Source: a bacterium
Lineage (GTDB): Bacteria; Patescibacteriota; Saccharimonadia; Saccharimonadales; UBA4665
Assembly (NCBI GenBank): GCA_021848145.1
Contig: JAJZMX010000004.1
Coordinates: forward strand, 434,001-498,000
Length of the DNA: 64,000 bases
Direction of reading: 5' to 3'
Shown here piece after piece: positions 19,493 to 22,235 of this stretch; the first letter of the stretch is position 1, and each line of letters starts with the position of its first letter. The notes below the pieces were generated by a model. That model was not told the origin of the DNA. It made no database searches and worked only from the letters and a program-made list of their open reading frames with translations. Both the position numbers and the translations under genes were made by a program.

Positions 19493-21022
19493 TCAGGCGT
19501 AGCCAGAGAAGAAGTCAATCTTAATGTTAGCACGGTTTACGCCAACGGCGATAAGATCTTCTTTAATTTCTTCAGTCATTTTTAGCGGACCCGAAATGTA
19601 AATTAGCCTGTCTTTAAAATCTGGTACTTTAGAGGATATAAGTTTAGCGTTCAGCCTACCGTTAATGCCATTCTCTAACCTACCAGCCTGGTTGCCATCA
19701 ATTACGTAACCTACTTTTAGATTAATTTTCTTTGCAGCTTCATCAAATAGTTCAGTATACGCGACATACTCAGGACTTCTTGCAGAATAAAACAGTACTA
19801 TATCGCGTTGTTGCCTCTTATCTATAAGGTATTTGACCATACTTCGGAAAGGAGTAATGCCTATGCCGCCAGCTATAAACAATAGTTTCTGGCTGGGATC
19901 TTTTGGTAAAGTAAAATCCCCGGCAAGTTGTGCGGCAACAATCTGATCTCCCGGTTCAATATCTGCTAAAGCCGACTTATAGCTACTACCATCCTTATAA
20001 AAACGAACTCCAATCTTAACATCTGGCTCGGTCGGAGACGATGATAGAGTAAACCATCGTCTCGATCCCCTAGTATCTGGCTTATCGTGAGGTAATGTAA
20101 ACTCCATATACTGACCCGGTTCGTAAGCAAACTTATGCTGAGGTGCAAAAACAAATTCAGCACTATCCTTAGCTATTAAATATTTTTTTCGAAGGGTAGG
20201 GAACAATTTGTCCTTATTGCTTACTATATATGCGAACAGGTTGCCAATAACTAAAGCGAATTCTGGAGTTGAATAGTAGTGGCCTATATGAAACTGGGGT
20301 GCCAATATTACACCTATAATTGCACCGTAAAGCATTCTCTTGCCTTTCGTGTCGGGAGAAGTATATGGTTCTGTCAGCATTACGAAACCAAGGAAAAATA
20401 CAGCTGAATTAAGAGCCATGTTCTTTAGGTTAGTGGCGACCCCGTTACCACCAATAATAGAAAATAGCGCCGTAGCTATAGTTGTTGCCAAAAGATAAGT
20501 TATAACCATTGGCTCACGCCGAATCTTACGTGTTATTAATATCCCGCCGATAATAACAAACGGCAACATTGATGCCGTTCCTATCCACCAGCTAGCACTT
20601 TGATGGGGTCCAATAGCTGTTAGAAAAACTGCTATAGCAGCTGGGTTAAATATGTGCTTGCTCTTTATGCTCAATAGGTATTTAGAGCCCATTGCCAGGC
20701 CAGCAGCTGCAAGCATAAATAAAAGACCAAAACCTGATGGACTTGATGGAATGATTAGTGCAAGTATGAGGCCCGTCAGGATGGACGATTCTGGGTTGAT
20801 TGGGGCATCAAATATGTAAGCAAATAATTTATTAATTATCCAGCAACTAAGCACCAGAACTATGGCGCTAATAGCTATGCTCAATGCACTAAAATGCATT
20901 ATCCCTACTGAAGAAAAGATAATCGCCACGACAATTAATCCTATTAAGTAATAAAGCAGCAACCTGTACATAGACAGTTTGTTAACCATACGGTCGATGG
21001 GGTATAGAAGCTTATCGAACAT
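19493..21022 (-). CDS. RnfD/NqrB-like membrane domain fused to a ferredoxin-NADP reductase domain
   Basis: About 270 N-terminal residues form some nine membrane helices with the RnfD/NqrB hallmark SKHIFNPAAIAVFLTA; no SGAT-type covalent flavin site is seen in this part. The C-terminal 230 residues are an FNR module: FAD motif RRWFTLSSS, NAD(P) motif GGIGITPFRS, YISGP and the terminal FFSGY. The fusion could move electrons from NAD(P)H into or across the membrane. I start at ATG 21022, which overlaps the ApbE gene by 11 bp; the track start at 21067 lies deeper inside it. It is the third gene of the flavin cassette. Confidence 0.85.
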   Translation of the reverse strand: MFDKLLYPIDRMVNKLSMYRLLLYYLIGLIVVAIIFSSVGIMHFSALSIAISAIVLVLSCWIINKLFAYIFDAPINPESSILTGLILALIIPSSPSGFGLLFMLAAAGLAMGSKYLLSIKSKHIFNPAAIAVFLTAIGPHQSASWWIGTASMLPFVIIGGILITRKIRREPMVITYLLATTIATALFSIIGGNGVATNLKNMALNSAVFFLGFVMLTEPYTSPDTKGKRMLYGAIIGVILAPQFHIGHYYSTPEFALVIGNLFAYIVSNKDKLFPTLRKKYLIAKDSAEFVFAPQHKFAYEPGQYMEFTLPHDKPDTRGSRRWFTLSSSPTEPDVKIGVRFYKDGSSYKSALADIEPGDQIVAAQLAGDFTLPKDPSQKLLFIAGGIGITPFRSMVKYLIDKRQQRDIVLFYSARSPEYVAYTELFDEAAKKINLKVGYVIDGNQAGRLENGINGRLNAKLISSKVPDFKDRLIYISGPLKMTEEIKEDLIAVGVNRANIKIDFFSGYA

Positions 21023-21743
21023 AATCCGAAAAGTTAGCCGTGTATGTTGCGCGTTTATTATCATCAATCATGTAAGCTGCAAATCCTGGCAATGCGCTAA
21101 TATAGTTAATCCCTGACTTTCCCATTGCAAATGCAGCAGTAGCAAAACGGTCAGCCTCAAAAATATTTGGACCAATGACCGTTAGGCTAACAATACCCTT
21201 TGGCACTTCAGTTCCGCTTGGGTCATATATATGCTGCCCCCTTAGGTAGGTACCACTTGTGGCAACGCCTTGGCCGCTAACACTAATAGACTTAATAATC
21301 TCAGATATATCAAAAGGGTTTCTAATACCGACATCCCATGATTCTCCAAATTCATTAACCCCTTCAGCCTGAATGTCTCCTCCTGCCTCTACATAAAAAT
21401 TATTAATACCCTTTTCTTTTATAAGTCTTGCGGCATTGTCTATGGCCCATCCTTTAACCAACCCAGAGGTATCAATTTTGCCCTTATGGCGAATCTCGAA
21501 ATATCCTCCTGTTATTTTCTTTGTCTGCTCACAGAGCTGCATAACTTCCTTCATCTCCGTCGACCAACCATCTACGTCAAGGCCATTATTTATAGCATTA
21601 AGCTCGCTAGTATCCTTGTATGGACTAAACCTGCTATCGACAGCTCTGAAGTAGTCAAACACTTCATCAAAAACGTTCTTCTTGCAGTTATCAACGACTT
21701 CTATAGTTATTGGCATTCCCATAATTAATTGAGTTTCTTTCAT
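21012..21743 (-). CDS. apbE: FAD:protein FMN transferase (ApbE)
   Basis: ApbE attaches FMN to a Thr of target proteins, using FAD. The family motifs are present: SRFSPY, SGLVKGWAID, VEAGGDIQAEG, HIYDPSG and EADRFATAAFAMG. At 243 residues it is short and lacks the signal peptide or lipobox of exported homologues, so it would act in the cytoplasm. It sits between an FMN-binding-domain protein (3 bp upstream) and the RnfD-FNR fusion, whose ATG overlaps its end, making the upstream protein its likely target. Confidence 0.92.
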   Translation of the reverse strand: MKETQLIMGMPITIEVVDNCKKNVFDEVFDYFRAVDSRFSPYKDTSELNAINNGLDVDGWSTEMKEVMQLCEQTKKITGGYFEIRHKGKIDTSGLVKGWAIDNAARLIKEKGINNFYVEAGGDIQAEGVNEFGESWDVGIRNPFDISEIIKSISVSGQGVATSGTYLRGQHIYDPSGTEVPKGIVSLTVIGPNIFEADRFATAAFAMGKSGINYISALPGFAAYMIDDNKRATYTANFSDYVR

Positions 21744-21746
21744 GAA

Positions 21747-22235
21747 TCAGGCCTTACTAAGTGCTGACTTTAATGATTGTATGAAGCCTTCTGAAGTAAA
21801 GGTGGCACCAGAAATAATTTGTACTCTAGAGTGTTGAGTCTGCAGAGCCTCCTGCTTAAGATACGGCATTGCCTGCTGATTTATATAAACGGAGGTTGCG
21901 TGAGTATTGGGGTACTGCAGGAACTGGACGTCAGATATACGGCCATTGTTAATTCTTACGGAAACTTGAACATTCCCATAATAAACATTTTCAACCTTCC
22001 CTATATATGTCCCGTCGCGATATGGACCTAGGCTAGTGCTTTTTGAACTTGTCGAATTGCTACTGGAAGATGGATTATTGCTGTAGGTTTTTGTTGGATT
22101 CGCAGACTTATTACTGTCATTGCTAGATTTAGCCAAAGAAGGAGGCTTGGCAATAATAGGGTGTTGGTGTCTAACTCCAATAGAATAAACGCCATAAATA
22201 GCTAGAACACCCAAACCTAATGCTGTTTTTTTCAT
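21747..22235 (-). CDS. Membrane-anchored FMN-binding domain protein (RnfG/NqrC/PplA-like)
   Basis: After an N-terminal hydrophobic helix (ALGLGVLAIYGVYSIGV) and a Ser/Asn-rich linker lies a single FMN-binding domain that ends with SGATFTSEGF, the motif whose Thr receives covalent FMN in NqrC and RnfG. The domain is probably outside the cell membrane. With the ApbE gene 3 bp downstream and the RnfD-FNR fusion after it, the three genes form a compact flavin electron-transfer operon. Confidence 0.88.
   Translation of the reverse strand: MKKTALGLGVLAIYGVYSIGVRHQHPIIAKPPSLAKSSNDSNKSANPTKTYSNNPSSSSNSTSSKSTSLGPYRDGTYIGKVENVYYGNVQVSVRINNGRISDVQFLQYPNTHATSVYINQQAMPYLKQEALQTQHSRVQIISGATFTSEGFIQSLKSALSKA

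What the first reader, a model, noticed from the sequence alone, without database searches (positions are those of the whole stretch)
19493..22235. Three-gene flavin electron-transfer cassette: FMN-binding protein, ApbE, RnfD/NqrB-FNR fusion
One tight operon encodes a membrane-anchored protein with a covalent FMN site (SGATFTS), its probable flavinylating enzyme, and a single polypeptide that joins an RnfD/NqrB-like membrane domain to an NAD(P)H:flavin reductase module. This could be a minimal transmembrane redox route, the equivalent of Rnf/Nqr or flavin-based extracellular electron transfer compressed into three proteins. No other Rnf or Nqr subunit is nearby.
Basis: partly seen in the sequence, partly recalled or inferred. 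Interest (0 to 1): 0.72.

Follow-up and report, generated by a model that had tools for sequence, protein, structure and literature searches.

The report
Known minimal flavin electron-export operon
Three adjacent genes in a tiny Saccharibacteria genome very probably carry electrons from NAD(P)H across the membrane to a flavin fixed outside the cell; this type of operon is already described, but its flavin-attaching enzyme has no export signal in about 100 relatives, which is unexplained.

Summary
On the minus strand an anchored FMN_bind protein (SGAT motif), ApbE, and an NqrB/RnfD-like membrane domain fused to an FAD/NAD(P)H reductase form one tight gene cluster. It is not part of a hidden Nqr/Rnf: the 98%-complete genome has no other FMN_bind or PF03116 gene and no RnfA/E-NqrD/E. 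The type is already described as the 'NQR/RNF-like system' (Meheust 2021; Huang 2024), mainly from Actinobacteria and the CPR, so this is a new member of a known kind. My additions: (1) the membrane domain lacks the stretch that carries the covalent-FMN threonine in NqrB; (2) none of 104 cassette ApbEs has room for a signal peptide, although the FMN domain should lie outside, so flavinylation probably precedes export; (3) in the family the cassette often has its own two-component system, paralogous to one beside the bo-type quinol oxidase, and the window genome lacks the cassette copy; (4) in some other CPR an NRAMP or VIT iron transporter follows directly, favouring ferric reduction. Cassette and oxidase occur independently in the family. 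Donor, flavin attachment, topology and electron acceptor are untested.

The parts
21747..22235 (-). FMN_bind protein, 162 aa: N-terminal MKK + hydrophobic anchor, Ser/Asn-rich linker, FMN_bind domain (residues 85-160) with SGATFT; expected FMN on Thr145 (codon 21803-21801)
   Evidence: PF04205 39.9 bits; matches solved FMN-binding domain 8p2a at 2.1e-10; only PF04205 gene in the genome
21012..21743 (-). ApbE, FAD:protein FMN transferase, 243 aa, no N-terminal signal peptide
   Evidence: PF02424 138.5 bits; matches solved FAD:protein FMN transferases; open frame of 244 aa, so no longer start is possible
19493..21022 (-). Fusion protein, 509 aa: NqrB/RnfD-like membrane domain (about residues 1-270) + FAD/NAD(P)H reductase domain (about 275-509). 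TTG 21067 is the longest possible start
   Evidence: PF03116 and PF00175; profile match of membrane half to RnfD 8ahx and NqrB 7xk3; AlphaFold2 pLDDT 90.8; FNR folds incl. NqrF

Best explanation
An NQR/RNF-like flavin electron-transfer system. Cytosolic NAD(P)H reduces FAD in the C-terminal domain of the fusion; electrons cross the membrane through a non-covalent flavin in its NqrB/RnfD-like domain; they reach FMN on Thr145 of the anchored FMN_bind protein on the outer face; that flavin reduces an external acceptor, most likely ferric iron, whose Fe(II) is taken up by a separate importer. ApbE attaches the FMN, probably in the cytosol before export. Shown by sequence: gene identities, fusion, motif, order, missing covalent-FMN stretch, missing ApbE signal. 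Inferred: cofactors, direction, topology, acceptor and place of flavinylation. The confidence is for the electron route; ferric iron as main acceptor I put at about 0.45.
For: Domains and fold; conserved order FMN-ApbE-fusion in CPR, Chloroflexota, rhizobia and, with a diverged FMN_bind, Actinomycetota; no other Nqr/Rnf genes; the same route proposed in the literature (PMC8238504; PMC11334425). For iron: NRAMP directly behind the fusion in L113, L166, L170, VIT1 directly behind in L117, VIT near rhizobial copies and L067, Fur-like genes near L052, L071, L073; the genome has an NRAMP gene.
Against: No iron gene adjoins the cassette in the window. Iron-linked loci are few of 95 and not independent. 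No direct evidence of flavin binding, direction or topology; a signal-less ApbE is unexpected for an outer substrate.
Confidence: 0.82

Rival explanations
1. It belongs to respiration or redox balance: the outer flavin reduces a quinone or another envelope acceptor and drains NAD(P)H when the oxidase is limited.
For: The genome has a bo-type quinol oxidase; in the family 15 cassette-linked two-component systems are paralogous to 39 that lie within 8 kb of the oxidase.
Against: Cassette and oxidase occur independently: 52 genomes have both, 5 cassette only, 31 oxidase only, 5 neither, Fisher p 0.50. The 97%-complete G046 has the cassette and no oxidase hit. The kinase family may simply have been duplicated.
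Confidence: 0.25
2. Extracellular electron transfer of the Listeria type: the outer flavin passes electrons to minerals, shuttles or the surface of the host bacterium.
For: Same logic of NAD(P)H, membrane conduit and outer flavoprotein.
Against: FMN_bind protein scores only 22.5 bits to PplA against a cut-off of 325; it is the only FMN_bind domain in the genome; no other EET genes adjoin.
Confidence: 0.15
3. A relic of a full Nqr or Rnf operon without its own function.
For: Homology to NqrB/RnfD, NqrC/RnfG and the FAD domain of NqrF.
Against: The fusion and the order are conserved in CPR and several other phyla, with 38 invariant columns in 46 sequences; the covalent-FMN stretch is consistently absent; frames are open.
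Confidence: 0.02

Closest known systems
NQR/RNF-like flavinylation systems (Meheust et al. 2021, PMC8238504; Huang et al. 2024, PMC11334425)
   Same: FMN_bind protein and a fusion of NqrB/RnfD-like membrane domain with a PF00175 domain in one flavinylation cluster; reported primarily from Actinobacteria and the CPR; no covalent-FMN site in the membrane subunit
   Different: Nothing of substance. Not found in the text of those papers: the missing ApbE signal and the linked two-component system
Na+-NQR and Rnf complexes
   Same: Homologues of NqrB/RnfD, NqrC/RnfG and the FAD domain of NqrF
   Different: No D/E subunits, no ferredoxin domain, no covalent-FMN stretch in the membrane domain, a single electron path; pumping not expected
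Listeria-type flavin-based extracellular electron transfer
   Same: Outer ApbE-flavinylated protein fed from cytosolic NAD(P)H
   Different: Different membrane conduit; FMN_bind protein not a PplA by score
SpNOX and related NADPH oxidases
   Same: Membrane electron conduit and C-terminal FNR domain in one chain; Foldseek match, mainly through the FNR part
   Different: Conduit is NqrB/RnfD-like, not a haem protein; a separate outer flavoprotein takes the electrons

Membership tests
NQR/RNF-like system | Flavinylation cluster with an FMN_bind and/or ApbE gene | tested here: met
   Both present and adjacent
NQR/RNF-like system | Protein with N-terminal PF03116 membrane domain and C-terminal PF00175 domain | tested here: met
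   44.3 and 51 bits, both above cut-off
NQR/RNF-like system | Signal peptide or lipidation site in at least one flavinylation gene of the cluster | tested here: inconclusive
   FMN_bind protein has an N-terminal hydrophobic anchor; no SignalP available; ApbE has none
NQR/RNF-like system | Membrane subunit lacks the NqrB/RnfD flavinylation site | tested here: met
   About 20 residues where NqrB has 67 (208-276) and RnfD about 100 between the aligned blocks
NQR/RNF-like system | One-way electron flow from NAD(P)H to an outer acceptor | not testable with these tools
   Proposed, not shown, in the papers too
Na+-NQR / Rnf complex | NqrD/E or RnfA/E subunits | tested here: not met
   No PF02508 match at E up to 1 in the genome
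Na+-NQR / Rnf complex | Covalent FMN in NqrB/RnfD | tested here: not met
   Stretch absent
ApbE, classical exported form | N-terminal signal or lipobox | tested here: not met
   0 of 104 cassette ApbEs; Citrobacter control has a 40-residue leader with FVGC
Listeria-type EET | PplA-type FMN_bind lipoprotein | tested here: not met
   22.5 bits against cut-off 325

The most novel reading that the evidence does not exclude
Bacteria with this cassette attach FMN in the cytosol, with a signal-less ApbE, to a protein that is then exported. This would remove the need to export FAD for flavinylation and would mean that an FMN-bearing chain passes the membrane.
Probability: 0.4. Interest if true: 0.6.

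Novelty: new member of a known kind. Interest (0 to 1): 0.33.

Why it matters
The class is predicted but I found no biochemical proof of it. CPR genomes are tiny, so keeping a dedicated electron-export operon in 57 of 93 genomes of the family says that it matters to them. The conserved lack of an ApbE signal makes a general question testable: on which side of the membrane is the flavin attached? The NRAMP and VIT operons suggest a concrete substrate to assay.

Tried and rejected
Full Rnf/Nqr elsewhere in the genome: none by three families. Neighbours as partners: methyltransferase, phosphoesterase, DedA and galU are shared mainly within the genus, so not taken as part of the system. Obligate link to the terminal oxidase: not supported by co-occurrence. 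A first hydrophobicity measure (17-residue window) failed on the Citrobacter control (1.55, within the range of cassette ApbEs), so it was replaced by leader length before the conserved core. Promoter and terminator scan gave no more than shuffles. A tree of 85 fusions puts the window in a supported Saccharibacteria clade, but the deeper order is mostly unsupported, so no claim of gene transfer is made.

Full report
OBSERVATION. The window (G000:C5:434001-498000) lies in a 950 kb, 98%-complete genome in 5 contigs. Close relatives are titled Candidatus Saccharibacteria. On the minus strand lie an FMN_bind protein (22235-21747), ApbE (21743-21012) and a 509-aa fusion (ATG 21022 to 19493). Pfam places all three above cut-off. 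The longer TTG start of the fusion is probably wrong, since relatives align from about MFDKLLYP. The SGATFT motif puts the expected FMN on Thr145.

GENOME CONTEXT. There is no other FMN_bind, no other NqrB/RnfD/RnfE family gene and no RnfA/E-NqrD/E. RnfB, RnfC and NqrA were not searched. The genome has a bo-type quinol oxidase (CyoA/CyoB-like) near 208 kb with a pyridine-nucleotide-dependent flavoprotein close by, an NRAMP transporter, two Fur-family matches and a second ApbE next to the ATP synthase genes.

STRUCTURE. AlphaFold2 with 46 relatives gives mean pLDDT 90.8 and pTM 0.85 for the fusion. Foldseek matches its C-terminal part to flavohaemoglobin reductase domains, NqrF and related FNR enzymes. 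The membrane half matches RnfD and NqrB of solved complexes by profile. In that alignment about 20 residues lie between two aligned blocks where NqrB has 67 (208-276), and RnfD has about 100. The covalent-FMN threonine of NqrB (236 in V. cholerae, from general knowledge) lies in the missing stretch. Huang et al. 2024 likewise report that the NqrB/RnfD-like subunit lacks the flavinylation site.

DISTRIBUTION. Of 93 genomes of the same family, 57 carry the fusion, some in part; many other hits in that search are only separate FNR proteins. In a phylum sample 65 of 380 genomes match at 1e-40, a few only in part. Named relatives include many CPR lineages, Dictyobacter and Ktedonobacter, Mesorhizobium and Devosia, and Microbacteriaceae. 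FMN-ApbE-fusion is the usual order, with exceptions where apbE is not between the two. A tree of 85 fusions places the window in a supported Saccharibacteria clade.

LITERATURE. Meheust et al. [quoted passage not shown] six contain a VIT1 transporter. Huang et al. 2024 (PMC11334425) model the Ktedonobacter complex. The finding is therefore a member of a known kind. I read text and legends only, not figures or supplements.

APBE WITHOUT A SIGNAL. The open frame of this ApbE is 244 codons, so no longer start exists. In 104 distinct cassette ApbEs the conserved core was located in 102, a median of 7 residues after the start; of the eleven with longer leaders, some being only over-extended reading frames, none is signal-like. 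The Citrobacter ApbE used as control has a 40-residue leader with a lipobox-like FVGC. FMN_bind proteins nearly all have an N-terminal hydrophobic stretch (103 of 108 by one measure; 89 of 108 by another). A 2025 review says that most ApbEs are secreted, and its examples of cytosolic ones serve cytosolic targets or form part of their target (PMC12052999). A cytosolic ApbE with an outer substrate implies attachment before export, export of ApbE by another route, or a wrong topology guess. No SignalP or topology predictor was run, and all three remain open.

REGULATION. In several family genomes a response regulator and a histidine kinase lie directly upstream of the FMN_bind gene in the same direction. 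Searching the family with one such kinase, the 15 cassette-linked homologues score 242 bits or more, and 39 others with 161-226 bits lie within 8 kb of oxidase subunit I; 31 are linked to neither, many on other contigs. The query was itself a cassette-linked kinase, so the score order alone is expected; the link of the second group to the oxidase is the informative part. The window genome keeps only the oxidase-side system (C5:212794-214480).

FUNCTION. Iron is the best supported acceptor: NRAMP directly behind the fusion in L113, L166, L170, VIT1 directly behind in L117, VIT near rhizobial copies (L139, L159, L187) and in L067, Fur-family genes near L052, L071, L073. These are few of 95 loci and not independent, no background count was made, and no iron gene adjoins the cassette in the window. 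A respiratory role is weakened by the independent distribution of cassette and oxidase (Fisher p 0.50). Donor (NADH or NADPH), flavin attachment, direction and acceptor are untested.

Noticed in passing
G000:C5:197773-198675 (L007:7774-8676, minus): A second ApbE (300 aa, no signal) lies next to the ATP synthase genes although the genome has only one FMN_bind domain; its substrate is unknown.
   Followed up: partly
G000:C5:212794-214480 (L078:12795-14481, minus): Two-component system beside the bo-type quinol oxidase, paralogous to the system that precedes the flavin cassette in relatives; oxidase linkage seen for 39 homologues in the family.
   Followed up: yes
L065, L067-L070, L075, L077, L174, L176, L181, L182, L186: A second, diverged form of the cassette with an ApbE of about 290-315 aa of another subtype and an FMN_bind-like protein that is hard to recognise (L068:4181-4675 has no Pfam hit) and often lacks SGAT.
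   Followed up: partly
L187 (Mesorhizobium sp. B2-1-1 plasmid NZ_CP083955.1): Plasmid-borne cassette flanked by VIT-family, cytochrome b, two-component and PepSY genes.
   Followed up: partly
window:18689-19447, minus: A SAM methyltransferase gene follows the cassette in the same direction throughout the genus but was not seen outside it.
   Followed up: partly
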